A stretch of 64,000 bases of DNA, taken from contig CBDCVA010000001.1 of NCBI GenBank assembly GCA_965222935.1, positions 372,001 to 436,000 of the forward strand, read 5' to 3'. Position numbers and translations under genes: made by a program. The notes under the pieces are model-generated. The model was not told the origin of the DNA, ran no database searches, and saw nothing but the letters and a program-made list of their open reading frames with translations. This DNA comes from CBDCVA01 sp965222935 [NCBI: Candidatus Latescibacterota bacterium]. Lineage in GTDB: Bacteria > Latescibacterota > CBDCVA01. Below, piece by piece: positions 9,327 through 36,948 of the stretch; the first letter of the stretch is position 1, and each line of letters begins with the position of its first letter.

Positions 9327-9767
9327 TTATTCTGGCGATAAAAAATCTTTAAGTCGAGTCACGATTTCGGTTTTTCTTTCCGTTTCGCATTCCCACACGA
9401 TCAATGCATTCCACCCGAGTTGGTGAAGATCGGCTATCTTCCGATGGTCACGGGCGATATTTTGCCTGAATTTGTCCTCCCAGAAGGAGGTTCGAGTTTT
9501 CGGCGTAGTTGTCCGATTGCATCCGTCATGTCGATGCCAGAAACAGCCGTGAATGAAAATTACCTTCCTACGAGCGGGGAAACATATATCGGGCGTTCCG
9601 GGAAGGTCGTTTCTGTGTAAACGATAACGGTAGCCGAGGCTGTGCAGCAACTTTCGAACAACCAACTCTGGTTTGGTGTCTTTCGGACCAACACGCGCCA
9701 TGAGAGCACTACGCTCCGGCGATGGTTCGATTTCACTCGGCGGCTTCTGCCGTATTCTCTGAGGCAT
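9327..9767 (-). CDS. vsr: Vsr very-short-patch repair endonuclease
   Basis: 146 residues from ATG 9767 (a TTG at 9797 would add 10). All Vsr motifs are present: RVGPKDTKPELVVRKLLH, then GTPDICF with the catalytic Asp, and IFIHGCFWHRHDGC with the zinc-binding Cys/His. Vsr nicks at T:G mismatches created by deamination of 5-methylcytosine, and in other systems Vsr-fold enzymes act as restriction nucleases. It overlaps the GHKL gene by about 35 nt and is the last gene of the operon that includes the C5-cytosine methylase. Noticeably AT-richer than surrounding housekeeping genes. Confidence 0.93.
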   Translation of the reverse strand: MPQRIRQKPPSEIEPSPERSALMARVGPKDTKPELVVRKLLHSLGYRYRLHRNDLPGTPDICFPARRKVIFIHGCFWHRHDGCNRTTTPKTRTSFWEDKFRQNIARDHRKIADLHQLGWNALIVWECETERKTEIVTRLKDFLSPE

Positions 9768-11751
9768 AATCGTCGATCGCTCGCATGACAGGATCAAGTG
9801 GATCTAAGTTCTTTCTTTTTTCTAGATATTCCTTATACGCCTCATACGCTTCTCGAAGAAGTTGATCATAAAAAACGATCCGAGCGTTAAACTGTTTCAA
9901 AACGCCAATAGCCCTCTTTTGGTCCCCCTTATCCCTCCATTCTTGAGGCTCCGTACCCAGAAGCAATACGATCTCAATAGGTTCGTTATGGAGGCCTTGT
10001 CTATCAAGAATTTTACGCGTCCCTGAGTAGTACTTCGATATTTGAGAACCAATCACATCGAATACTTTCACCTTTCTTTTTGATCTCTTGAGTTCAATGA
10101 TAACGTGCTGTCCGGCCGTCTTTCTATACTTGATATCGAGTCGTCCATTCTTTTCGTCATCGCTCAAATCGGCATCTACCTCTTTGAAGAGAGTCTGGAC
10201 CCTACTCTCCATGAAGTCGGTGCCCTCTGTGCGCTCCCATGATGGATCAAGCAACCAGAGATGATCGAACAGATATTTCTGTATGGCCTTTTCAAGGGCA
10301 TTTTCGTCGATTTTATCAGATAGTGTATGGATAACTTGGATTCTTTGTCGGACGATCTGTCCGTAGAGATTAAGTTCAAGAGCGTCAAGCTCGCTGAATA
10401 TATCAAGTGCTGCCTGTAGATCATCGTCACCGATGTGTCCCAACCTATCGAGGTTCTCATTGATGCGATAGAACTCGAAAGCCAGCACTGCGTGCTTTAT
10501 CATTTGTCTATATTCGTCGATTTTATCAATCCTTAACCGGTTGATCTTACCGAGCCATTTTTTCGCTCTCTTTTGAGTTGTCGGCTTGAGTTGATCCACC
10601 CAAGTCTTCACCTCCGGTATTTCCAACGCTTTCTTGGTTCCCTCCTTGGTCCTGAGCTCGGCCCACCGCCTCTGGATATGCTTCAGTTCATTGCCTATGA
10701 TTTCACGAAGTCTCCGGTATCTTTCGTCATCCTCGACAATGCGTTGACGACTGCTGGTCGCGGCATCCTCATCCCGATGCGTTCCCGGCCCGTCATATTC
10801 GTCCAGTTCGTCAACTCGAAGCTCTCCGACGAGATAGTTCGCGTAGACTCCTCGTTCAGAAAAGTCACTCAGGAGGTCTTCCTGGGCCATCTTCCCACGG
10901 ACGAATATGGCGATACGATTTAGGTTGTCTCCGTCTGCATCTTTCAGATATCGGACCTCCTTCACAGTCGCCAACCACCCATTGACCGTCATGGGTTCGT
11001 CTTGGATGGCGAGGTCACGAGACTCGATTTTCTCGGCTTCGCGGCACAGATCTATCACGTCTGGCTGCTCTCTATAGGTCCATAAGTATTGGATTTTGTC
11101 GTAGTAATCTCTATCCGAAGGCAGCACTTCTTCATCAGCTATGAATACCCTGAATCCGTGCTTTTCCCCGATGATTGAGAAGCGCCGTGCAACTCTCTTC
11201 TTGAGTGCTTTGGTGGTTCTGATCGTCTGTCGCTTCCGAAGATTGCCGAGTGTTATTCTCGTTCCACTCAAAAAATCGATCTTATTGTTCAGTAAAATTT
11301 CGGGTTCGTACGTGCTGCTTCCCCCTTCCTTCTGGATCTTCTCGCGTATGTCATTAAGCCGCATTCGGAAGGCGCTTTCGTGTCTGTCTTTCACTGTTTC
11401 GACCTTAATGGTATCGGCGACCGAGAACAACGACAACTTACCGATCCCCTTTCGGCCCATTGGGCTTCGCTTCTTCTGTGTCGTGCCGGGTAGCTCATCA
11501 CGGCGTCGATAGCCAACGGTCAGGAATCGGTCGTTGATGTCCTGCGGGGTCATGCCGATGCCGTCATCCTGAATAACGATCCGGTCAGCACCCCTGTCCC
11601 AAGTTATCCGAACCTCGGAAGCATCCGCGTCCCACGCGTTGGCCACGACCTCCGCCAGAACCGTGGGCACGTTGCTGTACAGATTGAGTCCCAGATGTTC
11701 CAGAACGTTGAGGCTTATGGTCATCTGGAACGTAGGTGTTTCGGTGTTCAT
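9733..11751 (-). CDS. GHKL (MutL/MORC-like) ATPase with C-terminal PD-(D/E)xK-like domain
   Basis: 672 residues from ATG 11751, which overlaps the C5-methylase stop as ATGA. The N-terminal GHKL ATP-binding fold shows the N box (E34, N38, D41), DDGIGM at 62-67 and the lid loop GRKGIGK at 99-105. The C-terminal region contains RLDIKY and VIIELKRSK, giving a D539...E553-x-K555 pattern as in PD-(D/E)xK nucleases, then a helical tail. MutL/MORC-type ATPases next to DNA methylases and nucleases are described in restriction-modification loci. Here it likely couples ATP-driven DNA sensing to cleavage (inference). The base composition is AT-rich, which supports acquisition by transfer. Confidence 0.85.
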   Translation of the reverse strand: MNTETPTFQMTISLNVLEHLGLNLYSNVPTVLAEVVANAWDADASEVRITWDRGADRIVIQDDGIGMTPQDINDRFLTVGYRRRDELPGTTQKKRSPMGRKGIGKLSLFSVADTIKVETVKDRHESAFRMRLNDIREKIQKEGGSSTYEPEILLNNKIDFLSGTRITLGNLRKRQTIRTTKALKKRVARRFSIIGEKHGFRVFIADEEVLPSDRDYYDKIQYLWTYREQPDVIDLCREAEKIESRDLAIQDEPMTVNGWLATVKEVRYLKDADGDNLNRIAIFVRGKMAQEDLLSDFSERGVYANYLVGELRVDELDEYDGPGTHRDEDAATSSRQRIVEDDERYRRLREIIGNELKHIQRRWAELRTKEGTKKALEIPEVKTWVDQLKPTTQKRAKKWLGKINRLRIDKIDEYRQMIKHAVLAFEFYRINENLDRLGHIGDDDLQAALDIFSELDALELNLYGQIVRQRIQVIHTLSDKIDENALEKAIQKYLFDHLWLLDPSWERTEGTDFMESRVQTLFKEVDADLSDDEKNGRLDIKYRKTAGQHVIIELKRSKRKVKVFDVIGSQISKYYSGTRKILDRQGLHNEPIEIVLLLGTEPQEWRDKGDQKRAIGVLKQFNARIVFYDQLLREAYEAYKEYLEKRKNLDPLDPVMRAIDDYASENTAEAAE

Positions 11752-12926
11752 TGGACGTGCTCCGCGAAGTGGGACCGGATGGATCGGGCGATCGCCCGGG
11801 CGAGAAGAACCGGAACTGCATTCCCGATCATGTGCCCCAGTTTCTTGAACTGGATGGCACCGCCCGGTTCGACGAAAGCATAGTCGGACGGGAACGATTG
11901 GAGAATGGCACCCTCGCGCAAAGACAAACCACGGTCCTGTTCGGGATGCCCAAATCTTCCGTTTCCGAATCCGTAGAACTGTGTCGTGATAGTCGGAGAA
12001 GGGCAGTCCCACTCCATCCGTCCATAGACGGATGCGTAGCCGCGGCCGGTTGTCGCCTTGTGGCAGTCCGAAACCAATTGGTCGTCCCAATCGCGCCAAC
12101 TGCCTCCTGGCTTGGCGGCTCGAATGCGTTTCAGGTTCAGCGATGACAACCTGCTACTGCGATGCAGTGGATCACTGGTATCGACGGTGCCTGCAACGAG
12201 TTTCGGCAAGTCTCCGATAGCTTGGGAGACAGTCTTGTATTGAGACGGATCGTGCGTTGGTGACTCCAATTTTATTTCGCCCAGCAGAGATGCCAAGACC
12301 ACGAGTCGAGATCGCCGCTGCGGTACGCCGTAGTCGGGAGCGAACGCGATTTGCCAATCAACGTGATAGCCTTCTCGCTCAAGTGTTTCGACGAAGCTAT
12401 CGAACACTTTCCCTTTTCTGAACTGTCTCAAACGCGGTACATTTTCCATCGAAACTACCGATGGCCTTATCTCGGATATGATCCGAGAAAAATCTTCCAG
12501 TAGTTGCCATTGCGGATCCGAGTTCTTCTGATTATAGGCTGAAAACGGTTGACACGGCGCGCAGCCGACGAGTACCGACACCCCCCCGGACGGGAATAGT
12601 CGCTTGATCTCCACGCCGTCAAGCGAGGCTATATCACGGCAGAAGAAAGGTGCCTTGTTGTTGTGCTCGAAGGCGTGACGACAACCCTCGTCGATGTCGA
12701 TGCCCGCAGCGATCTCGAATCCCTCCAACAAAAATCCGTGCGAAAGCCCTCCTGCCCCGCAGAAGAGATCAATGACGCTCCCAGCACGCTCACTGTCGAT
12801 GCAAGGACCAGACGACCGGGTCGGTTCCTTCCGACCCGACTGACGACGGGTGTTATCCACCTGTTTGTTCGTGCTCCGCTTGATCACTTGCCCAACCCTC
12901 TCATAAGGGCAACATACACGACTCAC
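11748..12926 (-). CDS. DNA (cytosine-5-)-methyltransferase
   Basis: 392 residues from a GTG that overlaps the upstream stop (GTGA). Motif I DLFCGAGGLSHG at 53-64, catalytic PCQPFS with Cys125, motif VI ENVPRL at 161-166, motif VIII QRRSR near 203, a target-recognition region around 215-300, and C-terminal motif X (LGHMIGNAVP). It transfers a methyl group from SAM to C5 of cytosine in an unknown target. All key motifs are intact. It sits between the type IIG-like gene and the GHKL ATPase in a minus-strand operon, and is AT-rich unlike the gene directly upstream. Confidence 0.95.
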   Translation of the reverse strand: MSRVCCPYERVGQVIKRSTNKQVDNTRRQSGRKEPTRSSGPCIDSERAGSVIDLFCGAGGLSHGFLLEGFEIAAGIDIDEGCRHAFEHNNKAPFFCRDIASLDGVEIKRLFPSGGVSVLVGCAPCQPFSAYNQKNSDPQWQLLEDFSRIISEIRPSVVSMENVPRLRQFRKGKVFDSFVETLEREGYHVDWQIAFAPDYGVPQRRSRLVVLASLLGEIKLESPTHDPSQYKTVSQAIGDLPKLVAGTVDTSDPLHRSSRLSSLNLKRIRAAKPGGSWRDWDDQLVSDCHKATTGRGYASVYGRMEWDCPSPTITTQFYGFGNGRFGHPEQDRGLSLREGAILQSFPSDYAFVEPGGAIQFKKLGHMIGNAVPVLLARAIARSIRSHFAEHVQ

Positions 12927-15900
12927 GAAACGCCCCGGATAGATGCCACCAATATCCCTACGATCCTCCTTGCAGTATCGCTAAAATACTGCATTTCGTC
13001 AAGCGTCAGGGGGCGGTCGAGGATGGCCCGTTCGCGGTAGGAGAGCCACTTCTTGAGGACCTGGTAGCCGCCGAGCTTGTAGCGCCACACGGCGGCGGGG
13101 ACGTTGCGCCAGAAGGCGCGGCCGTTCAGGTAGATATCGAAGGTGGTCGCGCCGAGCACGGGGATACCCCGCTCCCTCCCCGCAAGCAGGGAGGGGAGGG
13201 CGGCGCGTTCGTCGGGACTATACGGGCGTTCGACGGCGCGGCCCTGACCCGGCATGACGGCTTGCCCCGCTCCGAAGTGCCCCCAGTCGGCGGTGAGCGC
13301 GAAATCCTTGCCGGTCATGTTGCGTCCGTCGGTGGTGGCGGGCACGGCGATGGCGGCGATCTCCGGGCGCAACGCGCCTTCGGTGACGCCGGGCACGGGC
13401 GTTTTGGGGTCGAGAAGCCGGGCCAGTTCGCGGCCACGCGCGGCAGATCGGGCGAGCGCCTCCGCCACCGCGTCGTTATCGCCGTCGGGCCAGCCCGGAA
13501 GCGGGATGCGCGGCCACTCCATGCGAAGCGCCCCGGCGTTGGCCTCGCGGTAGGCGGGATCGTGCAGCACGGCGAGGACGTGGTGAAACAGGTCCTCCAC
13601 GCTCGCGCCCAAACGTTCGAGGTAGCGTTGCGCGGCGGGTGACAGGTTGGGGCGGCGTTGCGCGCCGGTCCCGTCAGTTCCGAGGCCGTCGTCGCGAAGC
13701 CATGCGGGGAACATGTTGGAGCCGCGCTCAATCAGATGCCGAGCGCCGATATGTTGCGTGAAGCATACCTGCGGTTCCGTCGCGCCCTTCCGTAAATGTT
13801 GCGCGTTGGAAAGCCACAGATTCCCTTTGAACACATGCGGCCTGTAGTCGGCGCGCTTTTCGTCGAGCAGCTTTGTTTCCGCTTCCCAATAGAGCCAGCG
13901 GTTGTCGAACGGCCGGTAGGCATGACGGACGAAGCCGCTCTTATTCGGACCACCGCGCTTGAGTAGCGCGTCGCGCACCCGGCGGGCGTCGAACCGCGCC
14001 GTGGTCTTCATCACGCCCGGATAGCGCCGCGCGATTTCCTCGTGGGTCAAATCCGCATCGAAGTAATCGGCGACCCGAGCCTTGAGCCGGTCGAGATCGG
14101 TATCGACCAGAAACGCATCGCGACCAGTCTGAACGCCGGGAAATGAGACCGGGAACAGGTCGGGCAGCGCGGGCCAGTCGGACCAGCCGTCGCTCACGGC
14201 CATTGGTTTGAACGGCAAGCCGAGGCGAAGATTGGGCTCCAGTTCCGAATAGCCCGAATTGATTTCGTGAGCGTCGAGACTGTCCAACAGCGCCTGCCGC
14301 CTCTCGCCGGCCCTTGCCTGGTGGAAATCGCGGTATCGGACGCGCCTGCCTGCCGATGAATCGGCAGCAACTCCAGATTTTGATAGCAATGCGATACTCG
14401 TGCCGACCTTGATGCCCGGTGATTGTCCTCGAAGCGCAAAGACCGTTTCGCTGGTTCGTCCGTCGGGCGCGTATTCCGAGATGATGCGGTCGCCGTGCAG
14501 ATTGTCGATGCGGACCGCGTCGAACGCCTCCAGGTAACGCTCCCTCATGCCGGTGAACGACAGCCCGTCGAGCCATGAGTAGTTGGAGATGAAGCAGACG
14601 ACGCCCCGGCCCGTCTTCTCGGCGATGCGCCGTTCGGCCATGCGGAAGAAGCGGACGTAGAGGTCGTTGAGCCCCTGGCCTTCGGGCCGCCGCACGCGCC
14701 TGGTGGTACGGTAGGCTTGCGAGAGCTCCCGTTCTTCGTCCACGGCCATGCCCGCGAAGCCGTTGTAGGGCGGGTTGCCGAGGATCACGAGGATGGGCCT
14801 CTCCTGCTTGACCCGCTCGGCGCGGTCGCGCTCCTCCTCCAATTCGGGAAAGGGGAGCGGCTTCTGCACCTTCGGCTCCCAGCCGGTGAGGGCGTTGGTG
14901 AGGAAGACGCCGGGGCGCTCATTCCCGTCGTCAGTCAGCGGCGCGTCGAGGGCCTGCATGGTGAGCCCGACCTGCAGGTGGGCGACGACGAAGGGCGCGG
15001 GCATGATCTCGAAACCGAACACCCGCTCCGTTGCCGCCCGTTTCACCCGCGCGCCGGTGAGCGCGCCCAGGCCCCGGCCTTTGAGGTTGGCGGCGATGCG
15101 GCGCAGCACTTCGGCCAGGTAGGCGCCGGTGCCGCAGCACGGGTCGAGGACGTAGACGTTATCCGCCGCGAGGCCGTCGGGGATGGCGAGATCGTCCTTG
15201 AGGGCCCTGTCCACGCGGGCGACCATGTAGCGCACGACTTCGGCGGGGGTGTACCAGACGCCCAACTGCTTGCGCAGGCCGGGATCGAAGGCTTCCAGGA
15301 ACGGCTCGTAGAAATAGGGGACGGCCTCGCCTTCGCTGAAGCGGGCGAAGAAGGCTTCCCGGTCCACTCGGTCCAGTGCGTCGGCCGTCCAGTCCAGCAC
15401 CTCGACGAGGCCGAGGGGCTGAAGGCGGCCGGGGTCCGAAAGCTGCTGGAACAGCGCCCGCAGGACCGGCGCGCGCAGATGCCAGACGGCATCGTGCCAG
15501 TTGAACCTGCCCACCGGCGGCGGGACCTGGCGCGACCACAGCACCCAGGCGGAGAAGACGCCGTAGAAGAGCGTCTGCACCAGCGTCGAGCGGAAGAAGG
15601 CCGCGCCGCGCTCACCCTCGAAGCGGACGCCGAGCGCTTCCTCCAGCGCGGAACGGACGGCCGCCAGGGACGGCTCATCGCCCGCCGCCTCGACGCGGGA
15701 AAGACCGTCGCGAGCGTAGGAGGCGAGCAGCCAGGCGAGGTCCTTCGGCTCGGCAAGCGCGGCGCGGTGCGACAGGGTGCGGCAGAGATATTCGGCGAAC
15801 CCCGCACCCCTGGCATGGGCGAACTTGCGCGGCGTCTCCAGCAGATGCTCGAACGCCTCGGCGCTATCGGCCAGTCGGAAGGTCTCCAGCTTGGCGGGAC

Positions 15901-16303
15901 GGCCCGCCGCGTCCTCGCCGAGCAGCAAGAAATCGCGCGTATTGGTCACCAGCACGAGCCGGTAGCGGTCCCAATAGCGGCTCACCTGGCCGCTTTCCGC
16001 CGTGAGCCAGGCGTCGTCGCCGGGCGGCTTCACCTCGACCACGCCGCGCTCCGGGATTTGCCCTTCCCTCGGCCTGCCCTTCTGCACCTGCTTCGCCGAA
16101 TAGAGGCCGACATCTGGGTGGCCCGCGCCCTGGTCTCTAAGCTCGACGACGCAGAACACCTTGGGCTTGAGCGTCGCGCCGACGGCGTTCAGCAACGCCG
16201 AGAGCGCCGGATAGCTTGAGCGCTCCCCGGTGGCGCCGCCGGAGGCGCGCATCCGCCGGAGATCGGTGAGGTAGGTTTCAACCGCTGTTGCGAGCCGCGT
16301 CAT
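12923..16303 (-). CDS. type IIG / ISP-like restriction enzyme-adenine methyltransferase
   Basis: 1,126 residues. The N-terminus carries a PD-(D/E)xK-like pattern (PDVGLY with D64 and VEVK with E90/K92). A helical coupler follows, then an N6-adenine methylase domain with motif I DPCCGTGA (387-394) and catalytic NPPYN (510-514), and a long C-terminal specificity region ending in a GGYQVLKKWLSYR segment seen in type ISP enzymes. No helicase/translocase motifs are visible, so it resembles type IIG/IIL more than full ISP enzymes. It is GC-rich except for AT-richer patches near 14,340-14,420 and 13,730-13,880. First gene of the operon; its stop overlaps the C5-methylase start. Confidence 0.88.
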   Translation of the reverse strand: MTRLATAVETYLTDLRRMRASGGATGERSSYPALSALLNAVGATLKPKVFCVVELRDQGAGHPDVGLYSAKQVQKGRPREGQIPERGVVEVKPPGDDAWLTAESGQVSRYWDRYRLVLVTNTRDFLLLGEDAAGRPAKLETFRLADSAEAFEHLLETPRKFAHARGAGFAEYLCRTLSHRAALAEPKDLAWLLASYARDGLSRVEAAGDEPSLAAVRSALEEALGVRFEGERGAAFFRSTLVQTLFYGVFSAWVLWSRQVPPPVGRFNWHDAVWHLRAPVLRALFQQLSDPGRLQPLGLVEVLDWTADALDRVDREAFFARFSEGEAVPYFYEPFLEAFDPGLRKQLGVWYTPAEVVRYMVARVDRALKDDLAIPDGLAADNVYVLDPCCGTGAYLAEVLRRIAANLKGRGLGALTGARVKRAATERVFGFEIMPAPFVVAHLQVGLTMQALDAPLTDDGNERPGVFLTNALTGWEPKVQKPLPFPELEEERDRAERVKQERPILVILGNPPYNGFAGMAVDEERELSQAYRTTRRVRRPEGQGLNDLYVRFFRMAERRIAEKTGRGVVCFISNYSWLDGLSFTGMRERYLEAFDAVRIDNLHGDRIISEYAPDGRTSETVFALRGQSPGIKVGTSIALLSKSGVAADSSAGRRVRYRDFHQARAGERRQALLDSLDAHEINSGYSELEPNLRLGLPFKPMAVSDGWSDWPALPDLFPVSFPGVQTGRDAFLVDTDLDRLKARVADYFDADLTHEEIARRYPGVMKTTARFDARRVRDALLKRGGPNKSGFVRHAYRPFDNRWLYWEAETKLLDEKRADYRPHVFKGNLWLSNAQHLRKGATEPQVCFTQHIGARHLIERGSNMFPAWLRDDGLGTDGTGAQRRPNLSPAAQRYLERLGASVEDLFHHVLAVLHDPAYREANAGALRMEWPRIPLPGWPDGDNDAVAEALARSAARGRELARLLDPKTPVPGVTEGALRPEIAAIAVPATTDGRNMTGKDFALTADWGHFGAGQAVMPGQGRAVERPYSPDERAALPSLLAGRERGIPVLGATTFDIYLNGRAFWRNVPAAVWRYKLGGYQVLKKWLSYRERAILDRPLTLDEMQYFSDTARRIVGILVASIRGVS

Positions 16304-16346: not shown

Positions 16347-16378
16347 CAGCCCACCCAGCATCACCGCCGAGTGGGCTG
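16347..16378 (-). terminator. hairpin between fdhA and the R-M operon
   Basis: CAGCCCAC at 16347-16354 pairs with GTGGGCTG at 16371-16378 (8 bp, 16-nt loop). It lies just after the fdhA stop and before the first restriction gene, both on the minus strand. No T-run follows, so intrinsic termination is uncertain. Confidence 0.35.
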
Positions 16379-33406: not shown

Positions 33407-33480
33407 GCGCCCATAGCCCAATTGGATAGAGCGTCTGGCTACGGACCAGAAGGTTGGGGGTTCGAGTCCTCCTGGGCGCA
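33407..33480 (+). tRNA. tRNA-Arg(ACG)
   Basis: Full cloverleaf: acceptor GCGCCCA/TGGGCGC, D-arm GCCC...GAGC, anticodon stem TCTGG/CCAGA with loop CTACGGA (anticodon ACG), T-loop TTCGAGT, discriminator A. CCA is not encoded. A34 needs deamination to inosine by TadA, whose gene is about 100 nt downstream. Confidence 0.95.
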
Positions 33481-33494
33481 CTTTCAGGTCATGC

Positions 33495-33567
33495 GGCTCA
33501 TTCGTCTAGTGGTCTAGGACGCCGGCCTCTCGAGCCGGAAACACGGGTTCGATTCCCGTATGAGCCA
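33495..33567 (+). tRNA. tRNA-Glu(CTC)
   Basis: Acceptor GGCTCAT/ATGAGCC, the D-arm beginning GTCTAGTGG typical of tRNA-Glu, anticodon stem CCGGC/GCCGG with loop CTCTCGA (anticodon CTC), T-loop TTCGATT, discriminator A. CCA is not encoded. 14 nt after tRNA-Arg. Confidence 0.95.
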
Positions 33568-33585
33568 CACCTTTTTTAGCCCGCG

Positions 33586-34080
33586 ATGGTCGAGTCCCCG
33601 CTTCTGACGCCGAAAGAGGCGGAGGGGTGGATGCGTTTAGCCTTGCGCGAGGCGGAGGCAGCGCTGGCGGCCGACGAAGTGCCCGTCGGCGCTGTGATCG
33701 TGAAGGGCAGTGCAGTGATCGGGCGCGGCTACAACCGTGTGGAGGCGCTGCGCGACGCCACGGCGCACGCCGAGATCCTCGCGATTGGGGCGGCCAGCGA
33801 GGCGCTGGGCGACTGGCGCCTGGAGGGGACAACCCTCTACGTGACGCTTGAGCCCTGTGCGATGTGCGCTGGGGCGATCCTCCTCGCCCGCATCCCGTGT
33901 GTGGTCTTCGGGGCGTACGATCCGCGGATGGGGGCGTGCGGCTCCGTCCTTCAGCTTCTGAGCGGCGCCTCTCTCGACCGCCAGCCCCAGGTGCTCGGGA
34001 GCGTTCTGGATGCTGAATGCGCTGGCCTTCTGCGCGACGCCTTTCGCGCTATGCGGGCTCGTGCTGAGAAAAGGCCTTGA
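33586..34080 (+). CDS. tadA: tRNA-specific adenosine deaminase
   Basis: 164 residues. Deaminase zinc site HAEILAI (His ligand and catalytic Glu) and PCAMCAGAI (two Cys ligands). EVPVGAVIV and ACGSVLQLL are typical of TadA. Converts A34 of tRNA-Arg(ACG) to inosine. ATG 33586 is 18 nt after tRNA-Glu and has no clear Shine-Dalgarno. In Bacillus subtilis tadA is followed directly by SRP RNA, dnaX, ebfC and recR. Here the same order continues after an AT-rich insertion. Confidence 0.95.
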   Translation: MVESPLLTPKEAEGWMRLALREAEAALAADEVPVGAVIVKGSAVIGRGYNRVEALRDATAHAEILAIGAASEALGDWRLEGTTLYVTLEPCAMCAGAILLARIPCVVFGAYDPRMGACGSVLQLLSGASLDRQPQVLGSVLDAECAGLLRDAFRAMRARAEKRP

Positions 34081-34102
34081 GAAGGAATCGATAAATAGAG
34101 TC

Positions 34103-35872
34103 ATGGCGAGTGCACAAGATAGCAGTTCGCAGAAGCGTACTGGTGACATTGTTAGAGATGAGTTATTCAGACGCAAGCTGACGATTGTTGCCGTCGTTGC
34201 CTTCATGCTCCTTGGTTCTGCGGTTACGCTCATTCAGCCACTGTTCTTCAAAATGTTGTTTGATTCTGCTATCCCTAAACAGAATACCTCGTTAGTGTGG
34301 TGGTTGTTATTGGGAATGGTCGTAAGCCCTTTGGTGGCGATCGGTATATCATATTTTCAGGGACATCTGCGTGTGCGCATTGGTGAGTCGGTCGCCCTCG
34401 CTCTAAGAAAGGCAGCATTTAACCATTTGATACATGTCAAGGTTGATGCAGTCGAAAAGATCCCTAAAGGGGGGATTGTCTATCGTATCACTCGGGATGC
34501 TGGGAAGATTGGCGAGATGTACATTGCGCATGAACTACTTCCTGTCGTTTCAAGTGCAGTCATGCTCCTTGGGACACTGGTTTTGATGTTTATGCTGAAC
34601 ATCGAGCTGGCGGTCGTTTTCAGTATCGCGTTGCCCGCGACCTATCTTGTCACCCGGTACTTGACTCAATACTCAAAGACTCTCGATAGCCATTTGAATG
34701 ACTGTAAGAAGGAAGCCGAGAGCTTTCTTTATGAGATTTTAAGTGGGTTTCGCACGATGCGCATGTTTAATGGAGAAAGTCGCGAGAAGGGGCGCTGGTC
34801 TGCCCACATGAATAAGCTCGCTCGGCTCGAGATGCGAGCTGAAGCCTTGCACGAGATCATGCTCAACTTTCCGAACGAAGTGATCAATGGTCTAGTTATT
34901 GGCATCTTGTTGGGTTATGGTGCTTTTCAGGCAATGGATGGCGAAGTTACTATTGGAAGCTTAGTGGCATTCATGGCCTATGCACCAAGAGCATACACCG
35001 CCTTGCGAGCTGTCCTGAAAACGTATGTTGGTACAAGGCGAATAGATGTTTCCGTCGACAGTTTGGACGAGCTGTTTGCTTTGCCCAGGGAGGCTGGACT
35101 CATTAGCGAGTGCAAACCCCTATCCATTGGAGAAGTGGCTCCAGACATAGAATTCTCAAATGTGTACTTTAAGCACGACCGAGGATATGGAGTGGAAGGT
35201 CTTTCTTTCACCATTCAGAGAGGCGAGTTCGTAGGTATTGTCGGTCCAAGCGGTGGAGGAAAGACCACAATCATTGACTTACTCATTCGACTGCACGATC
35301 CTGAACGCGGTAAGATCTCTGTAGAGGGAGCAGACATTCGTGAAGTATCACTTGAATCTCTTAGAGAACATATCGCCGTCGTACCTCAAGAGGTCTTTCT
35401 GTGGGACACTACACTCGCGGAGAATATCGCGTATCCAGAGAGTACCTACAAAATGGAGGATATTGTGCGAGCTGCAAGTTTATCGGAGGTACATGATTTT
35501 ATTCAAAAACAACCTGACCAGTACGAGACAATTTCAGGAGAGAGAGGCCTCGCGCTTTCAGGAGGCGAAAGACAAAGAATCGCCATGGCCCGTGCTCTAA
35601 GAAAAGCCCCCAAAATTCTCATTTTTGACGAGGCAACTTCTGCCCTTGATGCCCTCACTGAAGAAAAGATTAGGAACGCCATCGAGCGAGTAAGAATCGG
35701 CAGAACCACGATGGTCATTGCTCATCGACTATCAACTATATTGCTTGCGGATCGCGTTCTCGTAATAAGGGATGGGAACCTAATCGAAAGTGGGAGTCCT
35801 CGAGAGCTTGTAGACCGCAACGGTGTCTTTGCCAATTTGTATCGGGCCCAATCGTTGAATTTTCAAAAGTAG
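34103..35872 (+). CDS. ABC exporter (fused transmembrane and ATPase domains)
   Basis: 589 residues from ATG 34103. Six-helix exporter domain in about 20-310, then the nucleotide-binding domain: Walker A GPSGGGKTT, Q-loop VVPQEVF, signature LSGGERQR, Walker B ILIFDEATSALD, H-loop IAHRLS. MsbA/HlyB-type half transporter for lipids, peptides or drugs. The whole gene is visibly AT-rich with AT-ending codons, unlike tadA before it and dnaX after it. It lies between tRNA genes inside a conserved gene order. Likely horizontally acquired; substrate unknown. Confidence 0.93.
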   Translation: MASAQDSSSQKRTGDIVRDELFRRKLTIVAVVAFMLLGSAVTLIQPLFFKMLFDSAIPKQNTSLVWWLLLGMVVSPLVAIGISYFQGHLRVRIGESVALALRKAAFNHLIHVKVDAVEKIPKGGIVYRITRDAGKIGEMYIAHELLPVVSSAVMLLGTLVLMFMLNIELAVVFSIALPATYLVTRYLTQYSKTLDSHLNDCKKEAESFLYEILSGFRTMRMFNGESREKGRWSAHMNKLARLEMRAEALHEIMLNFPNEVINGLVIGILLGYGAFQAMDGEVTIGSLVAFMAYAPRAYTALRAVLKTYVGTRRIDVSVDSLDELFALPREAGLISECKPLSIGEVAPDIEFSNVYFKHDRGYGVEGLSFTIQRGEFVGIVGPSGGGKTTIIDLLIRLHDPERGKISVEGADIREVSLESLREHIAVVPQEVFLWDTTLAENIAYPESTYKMEDIVRAASLSEVHDFIQKQPDQYETISGERGLALSGGERQRIAMARALRKAPKILIFDEATSALDALTEEKIRNAIERVRIGRTTMVIAHRLSTILLADRVLVIRDGNLIESGSPRELVDRNGVFANLYRAQSLNFQK

Positions 35873-35929
35873 AGGCGGTACGAACCGGCGGCCCAGCCCC
35901 TGAGTCTCTGCAGCCTGAGAACCAGTGCA

Positions 35930-36113
35930 ATGGAAGATCCGGATGTACAGAGATTCACATGGCAGGAATACAAGAATGCTGGAGGCACCGAGCTTCCGAA
36001 GACCGATCCTATTTGGTCAATCGGTTTGGTTTGGGTGCACCGCAAACATAGGCAGCGCGGATTAGGAACGCGGCTTGCCCAAGCTGCAGCATCTCACTTT
36101 GATATTGGAATGC
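35930..36113 (+). pseudogene. truncated GNAT acetyltransferase remnant
   Basis: From ATG 35930 the frame reads an N-terminal piece, then WSIGLVWVHRKHRQRGLGTRL, which is the acetyl-CoA-binding motif A (R-x-x-G-x-G) of GNAT enzymes preceded by its beta strand. The rest of the fold, after ASHFD, is missing because tRNA-Ser(CGA) begins at 36114 and the stop (36125-36127) lies inside the tRNA. It appears to be a gene broken by insertion or recombination at the tRNA. Confidence 0.6.
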
Positions 36114-36202
36114 GGAGAGGTGCCTGAGTGGTTGAAAGGGGCGGTCTCGAAAACCGTTGTGGCCTTTGGTCACCGGGGGTTCGAATCCCTCCCTCTCCGC
36201 CA
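36114..36202 (+). tRNA. tRNA-Ser(CGA)
   Basis: Acceptor GGAGAGG/CCTCTCC, discriminator G, encoded CCA (36200-36202), anticodon loop CTCGAAA (CGA), long class II variable arm (TGTGGCCTTTGGTCACC region) and T-loop TTCGAAT. Abuts the truncated GNAT remnant. Confidence 0.95.
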
Positions 36203-36670
36203 TTGATTTGAGGTGTGACGCAAGTTCTTTCGGATCAGTAAGATCTGACGCTTCCCGTTTCTTGCTCTCCCGTTGCCCTTGGAATCTGAGCGCGATCCAG
36301 ACGATTGAAGCGGCCTTTCATGAGTATGCGCTGCTCGGCGGTACGCCGGATGCCGTGCACGTTCTGGTCGCCGCGGTGCGGTATTCCGCAGCCCACGTAC
36401 CACCGTGCGGGCGCAAGGACAGACCTGTCAGATCGCCAGCCGACGCCCCTGCGGCGAGCATCTCTATGAGGATCTCCAGTGTGCAACGATCAGCCTCAGT
36501 TCACGAAGAGGCGATAGCGTATCTGCGCTCTGCTTCGATCATGCAACCGCCTTCGGCGCTCCGTACGTACCAAAGGCAATTAAGCCAAAAGCTGCTCCCG
36601 CCTGGCTTGACACCTTTACGCTGGCTGCCCATCTTTCGGTCGTTCCGAAGGTGTCTCACGGACGGCCTGC
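36203..36670 (+). other. 468-bp spacer between two tRNA-Ser genes; no supported gene
   Basis: Open frames cross this stretch, but none has recognisable motifs, a ribosome-binding site or consistent codon use, and the longest run into the flanking tRNAs. It is bounded by near-identical tRNA-Ser 3' halves (GGTTCGAATCCCT...CTCTCCGCCA), so deletion or insertion by tRNA-tRNA recombination is plausible. Confidence 0.5.
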
Positions 36671-36763
36671 GGAGAGATGTCCGAGAGGCCGAAGGAGCAC
36701 GCTTGGAAAGCGTGTGAGGGGTTTATAGCTCCTCCGAGGGTTCGAATCCCTCTCTCTCCGCCA
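36671..36763 (+). tRNA. tRNA-Ser(GGA)
   Basis: Acceptor GGAGAGA/TCTCTCC, discriminator G, encoded CCA (36761-36763), anticodon stem CACGC/GCGTG with loop TTGGAAA (GGA), long variable arm (TAGCTCCTCCGAGG region) and T-loop TTCGAAT. Confidence 0.95.
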
Positions 36764-36872
36764 TCAGCCGCGTTGGCGTACGTGATACCTGCATCGGCGA
36801 CCGCGCTGTGGGGAGAGCGAGGCGCGGGAACCCTTGGACGCTGCCGGTCGTGAGAATGGGGAAAATTGGGGT

Positions 36873-36948
36873 GGGGCAGTAGCTCAGTTGGGAGAGCGCA
36901 TCCCTCGCACGGATGAGGCCGGCGGTTCGACTCCGCTCTGCTCCACCA
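36873..36948 (+). tRNA. tRNA-Ala(CGC)
   Basis: Acceptor GGGGCAG/CTGCTCC, D-arm GCTCAGTTGGGAGAGC, anticodon stem CATCC/GGATG with loop CTCGCAC (CGC), T-loop TTCGACT, discriminator A and encoded CCA (36946-36948). Confidence 0.94.

What the first reader, a model, noticed from the sequence alone, without database searches (positions are those of the whole stretch)
9327..16303. Four-gene restriction/defence operon: type IIG-like enzyme, C5-methylase, GHKL ATPase-nuclease, Vsr
Seen directly: four minus-strand genes joined by 4-nt stop/start overlaps (GTGA, ATGA) and a ~35-nt overlap. Known: MutL/MORC-like GHKL ATPases occur in restriction-modification loci with methylases and Vsr-like nucleases. 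Unusual here: a complete R-M enzyme of another type (adenine methylase plus nuclease) heads the same operon, so two methylation chemistries (m6A and m5C), two PD-(D/E)xK-like domains and a Vsr nuclease are co-expressed. A composite system in which the GHKL protein uses methylation state or Vsr nicks to trigger cleavage is inference.
Basis: partly seen in the sequence, partly recalled or inferred. Interest (0 to 1): 0.85.

Follow-up and report, generated by a model that had tools for sequence, protein, structure and literature searches.

The report
Two neighbouring restriction systems, not one
Four adjacent bacterial defence genes turn out to be two ordinary, separately occurring DNA restriction systems lying end to end: a single-chain adenine-methylating enzyme that blends with the host genome, and a foreign-looking three-gene cassette of a known family that probably guards against unmarked GTCGAC sites.

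Summary
The four genes, coordinates and overlaps are real. The composite-system reading is not supported. C5 methylase, GHKL nuclease and Vsr form a known Type II system: the GHKL protein scores 764.8 bits against NCBIfam NF050001, 'BbrUII/HgiDII family restriction enzyme' (cut-off 550), the paraMORC3 kind described in 2008 (PMC2292703). The same trio order recurs without the first gene in L113 and, with a truncated Vsr, in L001. The first gene is a separate IIG-type enzyme with a Type-ISP-like C-terminus and no helicase hit. Its codon usage is host-like (0.716; 15 reference genes 0.651-0.746); the trio's is not (0.394-0.491). No IIG homologue lay near 65 near-full-length GHKL loci, and no trio gene near 38 IIG loci, within the flanks held. 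GTCGAC, the reported M.HgiDII site, occurs 8 times in the window against 27.7 expected. Six other genomes show no such loss, but two of those carry relatives of the system, so the support for this site is moderate. Best reading: two independent restriction systems side by side, perhaps co-transcribed. New member of a known kind; low interest.

The parts
12923..16303 (-). System 1: single-chain IIG-type enzyme, 1126 aa: putative N-terminal PD-(D/E)xK nuclease (D64, E90, K92), N6-adenine methylase (DPCCGTG, NPPY), Type-ISP-like C-terminal specificity domain; no helicase hit
11748..12926 (-). System 2: C5-cytosine methylase (start codon uncertain)
9733..11751 (-). System 2: GHKL ATPase with C-terminal PD-(D/E)xK-type domain (E487, D539, E553, K555), BbrUII/HgiDII family restriction enzyme (paraMORC3)
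9327..9767 (-). System 2: Vsr mismatch endonuclease, 146 aa from ATG 9767, overlapping the GHKL gene by 35 nt
12971..13002 (-). Promoter-like site (TTGACG, 17 nt, GATACT) overlapping a perfect 8-bp inverted repeat at the 3' end of the IIG gene; possible own promoter or operator of the trio (speculative; 6 such sites found against 2.1 expected, no single one significant)
16347..16378 (.). 13-bp imperfect inverted repeat (85% complementary) between the upstream gene and the IIG gene; not called terminator-like by the scan

Best explanation
Two independent restriction-modification systems stand end to end. System 1 is a single-chain IIG-type enzyme that methylates adenine at an unknown site and cuts DNA lacking that mark (inferred from domains). 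System 2 is a three-gene Type II cassette of the BbrUII/HgiDII (paraMORC3) family: the C5 methylase marks host sites, most likely GTCGAC; the GHKL ATPase-nuclease, probably an ATP-dependent DNA clamp, cuts unmarked sites with its C-terminal PD-(D/E)xK-type domain; Vsr repairs the T:G mismatches left when the m5C marks deaminate. Shown here: gene content, family membership, intact motifs, a trio that recurs without the IIG gene, a compositional break, and scarcity of GTCGAC in the window. Inferred: cleavage, clamp action, exact site, phage defence, Vsr's substrate. The trio probably arrived by horizontal transfer and settled directly behind an older restriction gene; it may share that gene's transcript or use its own promoter.
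For: GHKL 764.8 bits to NF050001, cut-off 550. Trio order recurs in L113 (ATGA overlap, 23-nt Vsr overlap) and in L001 (1-nt TGATG junction, truncated Vsr), both without an IIG gene. Of 54 near-full-length viral-contig GHKL loci 53 have C5, 13 have Vsr, 0 have IIG; IIG hits are 0 in all 80 loci fetched. 0 of 38 IIG loci have a trio gene in the DNA held. Codon usage: IIG 0.716 inside the host range 0.651-0.746, trio 0.491, 0.450, 0.394. IIG gene complete against its nearest relatives. GTCGAC 8 against 27.7 expected; outside the operon 8 against 23.1, nominal p 0.0016, the smallest of 42 palindromes. The region between C5 motifs VIII and IX is at least as conserved as the whole protein in 27 of 30 chosen relatives.
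Against: The genes overlap and point the same way, so co-transcription is possible. G001 and G185 carry relatives of the system yet show no GTCGAC avoidance (0.83 and 0.89), so avoidance does not follow the family. The p value is about 0.07 after correction for 42 palindromes. M.HgiDII and M.BbrUII were not themselves aligned. Searches covered one bacterial phylum, plasmids, phages and viral contigs; the host's own relatives could not be reached.
Confidence: 0.85

Rival explanations
1. One composite four-gene defence system: the m6A and m5C marks are read jointly, or the GHKL protein acts on breaks made by the IIG enzyme or Vsr.
For: Same strand, 4-nt and 35-nt overlaps; all motifs intact.
Against: No recurrence: 0 of 65 near-full-length GHKL loci and 0 of 38 IIG loci; sharp compositional break between genes 1 and 2; trio complete by itself as a known family.
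Confidence: 0.05
2. The trio is real but is not a GTCGAC-specific restriction system: the GHKL protein works more like a Shedu nuclease, sensing phage DNA or DNA ends, with the C5 methylase and Vsr as self-protection and upkeep, possibly at another site.
For: C-terminal region weakly matches Shedu SduA_C (E 0.0012, 19.5 bits). VcSduA, a GHKL-plus-nuclease protein of a kind earlier called paraMORC3, stops phages, and its E27A and K557A variants do not (passages of PMC12137116). G001 and G185 show no GTCGAC avoidance.
Against: SduA_C score is below the gathering cut-off of 27 while the BbrUII/HgiDII model is passed by 215 bits. A C5 methylase adjoins 53 of 54 relatives, which fits a methylation-guarded nuclease. 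GTCGAC is depleted in the window.
Confidence: 0.1

Closest known systems
BbrUII / HgiDII Type II restriction-modification systems (NCBIfam NF050001; paraMORC3 of Iyer et al. 2008, PMC2292703)
   Same: GHKL ATPase fused to an E-D-ExK nuclease, adjacent C5 methylase, sometimes Vsr
   Different: Here the trio sits directly behind an unrelated IIG gene
Type IIG / Type ISP single-chain enzymes (LlaGI 5ffj, LlaBIII 4xqk, and 7lo5)
   Same: Adenine methylase and C-terminal specificity region: alignment from residue 328-329 to 617-935; Type_ISP_C 148.6 bits
   Different: No helicase hit and shorter (1126 aa) than the LlaGI and LlaBIII chains (1406 and 1578), whose matched methylase begins at residue 681 or 845 instead of 328
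GHKL-type Shedu nuclease VcSduA (PMC12137116)
   Same: GHKL ATPase fused to a PD-(D/E)xK nuclease (passages)
   Different: Window protein is below the SduA_C cut-off; the term search in that paper found no Vsr or Dcm

Membership tests
BbrUII/HgiDII (paraMORC3) Type II R-M system | GHKL protein passes the curated family model | tested here: met
   764.8 bits, cut-off 550, profile 1-659 of 659
BbrUII/HgiDII (paraMORC3) Type II R-M system | GHKL ATP-binding motifs and C-terminal E-D-ExK residues | tested here: met
   N38, D62, G64, G66, GRKG, E487, D539, E553, K555 invariant in 33 sequences; strand-helix order in the model, pLDDT 79.5, pTM 0.63
BbrUII/HgiDII (paraMORC3) Type II R-M system | adjacent C5 methylase | tested here: met
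   TIGR00675 141.2 bits, cut-off 100.65
BbrUII/HgiDII (paraMORC3) Type II R-M system | recognition of GTCGAC | tested here: inconclusive
   window 8 against 27.7 expected, but bearers G001 and G185 show no avoidance
BbrUII/HgiDII (paraMORC3) Type II R-M system | DNA cleavage blocked by m5C | not testable with these tools
   needs biochemistry
paraMORC3 (Iyer et al. 2008) | S5-fold domain after the GHKL domain | not tested
   domain not examined on its own; the front part of the model matches Hsp90 and MORC2 chains
Vsr endonuclease | Vsr family score and conserved catalytic stretch | tested here: met
   TIGR00632 141.9 bits, cut-off 97.85; aligned LPG.PD and HGCFWH stretches with 1cw0
Type ISP enzyme | helicase/translocase between nuclease and methylase in one chain (recalled definition) | tested here: not met
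   no helicase family hit; 1126 aa
Type ISP enzyme | Type_ISP_C specificity domain | tested here: met
   148.6 bits, cut-off 25.9
Type IIG enzyme | adenine methylase in one chain with a nuclease | tested here: inconclusive
   methylase met and PADLOC IIG models up to 296.6 bits; nuclease rests on P63-D64, E90-x-K92 conserved in an alignment of 4 rows, with no Pfam nuclease hit to the N-terminal 329 residues
Shedu (SduA_C) | SduA_C domain above the gathering score | tested here: not met
   19.5 bits against 27
Composite four-gene system | recurrent linkage of the IIG gene and the trio | tested here: not met
   0 of 65 GHKL loci and 0 of 38 IIG loci in the DNA held

The most novel reading that the evidence does not exclude
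The cassette has been captured behind the IIG gene into one transcription unit whose products cooperate: two orthogonal methyl marks (m6A and m5C) license host DNA, and the ATP-driven GHKL clamp reads both, giving a double-licence restriction barrier with Vsr as upkeep.
Probability: 0.04. Interest if true: 0.7.

Novelty: new member of a known kind. Interest (0 to 1): 0.2.

Why it matters
It shows how restriction systems can come to lie next to each other and look like one operon, so that codon overlap alone is weak evidence of joint function. The GHKL Type II enzymes, restriction enzymes with an Hsp90/MORC-like ATPase, have no close solved structure in the PDB copy searched (only Hsp90/HtpG chains matched by sequence). 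This cassette has all motifs intact and lies in a genome stretch poor in its expected site, so it is a reasonable subject for biochemistry.

Tried and rejected
An insertion that truncated the IIG gene: rejected, because its nearest relatives L074-L076 end at about the same residue. A target-site duplication at the cassette ends: the longest shared exact repeat was 7 bp, ordinary for random pairs of stretches in the window. IIG genes on viral contigs: a single-sequence scan found none; a profile scan found 5, none with trio genes in the DNA held. An excess of deamination products of GTCGAC was not seen (GTTGAC 18 against 15.7, GTCAAC 10 against 13.7).

Host identification failed: no whole genome is held for the window. 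An aconitase-like gene (my name for it) is at best 56% identical in 60 genomes of the phylum of G001, so the host probably lies outside that phylum; the genome counts were thus made in another phylum. The single-sequence model of the GHKL C-terminal region was too poor to use (pLDDT 39.8). Foldseek with the full-length model showed Hsp90-type and MORC2 chains in the 50 rows listed of 901; no nuclease appears among those rows, so the nuclease fold rests on motifs and predicted strand order.

Rows dropped before counting: 26 of 80 viral GHKL loci with partial or weak matches; 16 of these 26 have a C5 hit of 150 bits or more, 3 a Vsr hit and 0 an IIG hit. The 80 were the best of 90. The C5 region comparison used 30 loci of my choice. 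Of 35 loci considered for A3, L113, L132, L140 and L144 were left out for in-frame stops or length. The 15 reference genes were picked and named by me; the low-GC ABC gene was kept out of the reference.
Full report
What is there. Four minus-strand ORFs occupy 16303-9327 as described: a 1126-aa enzyme, a 392-aa C5 methylase, a 672-aa GHKL protein and a Vsr endonuclease (146 aa from ATG 9767). The overlaps GTGA, ATGA and 35 nt are real, although the first depends on an uncertain methylase start. Pfam, NCBIfam and PADLOC agree on the kinds of protein.

The trio is a known system. The GHKL protein matches NCBIfam NF050001, 'BbrUII/HgiDII family restriction enzyme', at 764.8 bits (cut-off 550) over all 659 positions. 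Iyer et al. 2008 (PMC2292703; first of four parts and searched passages seen) described paraMORC3 proteins: GHKL plus S5 plus a C-terminal RE-fold domain with E-D-ExK, in neighbourhoods with DNA methylases and Vsr-superfamily nucleases. In 33 aligned relatives E487, D539, E553 and K555 are invariant, as are N38, D62, G64, G66 and the GRKG loop; in another set of 10, two haloarchaeal rows have D at 553. The AlphaFold2 model (pLDDT 79.5, pTM 0.63) puts these residues on the helix and strands expected of a PD-(D/E)xK domain, and the best Foldseek rows are Hsp90-type chaperones and MORC2. M.HgiDII is given as a 5mC methylase recognising GTCGAC in a passage of PMC5867850. That BbrUII is a SalI isoschizomer is recalled; the primary paper is not held.

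The trio travels without the IIG gene. Of 80 viral-contig loci (the best of 90), 54 carry a near-full-length GHKL gene. Of these 53 have a C5 methylase beside it (26 on the same strand, 27 on the opposite), 13 have a Vsr, and 0 have an IIG homologue; 46 of the 54 have at least 1.5 kb on both sides. No IIG hit occurs in any of the 80. Seven plasmid loci and one phage locus and three genome loci (G001, G185, G161) also lack it: together 0 of 65. A C5 methylase is present in 6 of the 7 plasmid loci, the phage locus and the 3 genome loci. L113 repeats the window's order with an ATGA overlap and a 23-nt Vsr overlap, although its GHKL frame is broken. L001 repeats it with a 1-nt TGATG junction and a Vsr that has lost the HGCFWH stretch.

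The IIG gene lives without the trio. In 396 genomes of the phylum of G001, 27 hold a homologue at E <= 1e-50 and 3 hold a GHKL over the family cut-off; no genome is in both lists, where about 0.2 would be expected by chance, so this figure alone says little. None of the 30 IIG places showed C5, GHKL or Vsr in flanks of up to 1.5 kb, some cut short by contig ends; nor did 8 larger regions of 5-20 kb, 5 viral loci or 6 plasmid loci. Together 0 of 38 loci. The closest relatives (68-70% identical) end at about the same residue, so the window gene is complete. It gave no helicase hit, unlike what the longer LlaGI and LlaBIII chains would imply.

Composition separates them. The IIG gene has GC3 0.83 and a codon-adaptation-like value of 0.716, inside the 0.651-0.746 of the 15 window genes that served as reference. 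C5, GHKL and Vsr have 0.491, 0.450 and 0.394.

Specificity. GTCGAC, chosen beforehand from the family name, occurs 8 times in the window where 27.7 are expected. Six other genomes, 200 kb each, give observed/expected 0.83, 0.89, 0.90, 0.80, 0.91 and 0.97, and 18 of their 60-kb blocks give 0.71-1.03. Outside the operon the window has 8 against 23.1; scaled by the control mean, nominal p is 0.0016, the smallest of 42 palindromes (about 0.07 corrected). CAGCTG is rarer still but is scarce in the other genomes too. Against the reading: the first two of the six, G001 and G185, carry relatives of the system and show no avoidance. The C5 region between motifs VIII and IX is at least as conserved as the whole protein in 27 of 30 chosen relatives, which fits one shared site across the family but does not name it.

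Mechanism. The most likely arrangement is two independent restriction barriers: an m6A-marked IIG enzyme, and a C5-marked GHKL nuclease with Vsr as repair partner for deaminated m5C. Clamp-like ATP action is inferred from relatives; for VcSduA, a GHKL-nuclease protein, variants in either domain lost phage defence (passages of PMC12137116). A separate study also reports C5 methylases and Vsr genes near paraMORC-related GHKL genes (passages of PMC8011034). A shared transcript with the IIG gene is possible. A promoter-like site overlapping an 8-bp inverted repeat lies at 13002-12971, but 6 sites were found against 2.1 expected and no single one is significant.

Verdict. Observation confirmed; composite interpretation not supported. 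The locus is a new member of known kinds in a chance or defence-island juxtaposition. Searches for print on this family were. The juxtaposition itself was looked for only indirectly (listing only), so I do not claim it is unreported.

Noticed in passing
34010-35872: A low-GC gene (GC 0.48, codon value 0.382) that looks like an ABC transporter (my reading of its sequence) lies among five tRNA genes at 33407-36948, a second foreign-looking patch in the window.
   Followed up: no
window, whole: GTCGAC is scarce (8 against 27.7 expected), more so than in six other genomes.
   Followed up: partly
12971-13002: A perfect 8-bp inverted repeat overlaps a promoter-like site inside the 3' end of the IIG gene.
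   Followed up: partly
L014 7992-11040: Escherichia phage PhiR44_1 carries a ParaMORC3 gene next to a dcm gene between its portal gene Q and replication gene A, apparently as cargo.
   Followed up: no
L011 7986-17860: On a Deinococcus plasmid the same three gene kinds lie next to annotated DISARM genes drmC and drmA.
   Followed up: no
L001 8958-9176: In the Vicinamibacterales relative the Vsr reading frame has lost the HGCFWH stretch while the C5 and GHKL genes stay open.
   Followed up: partly
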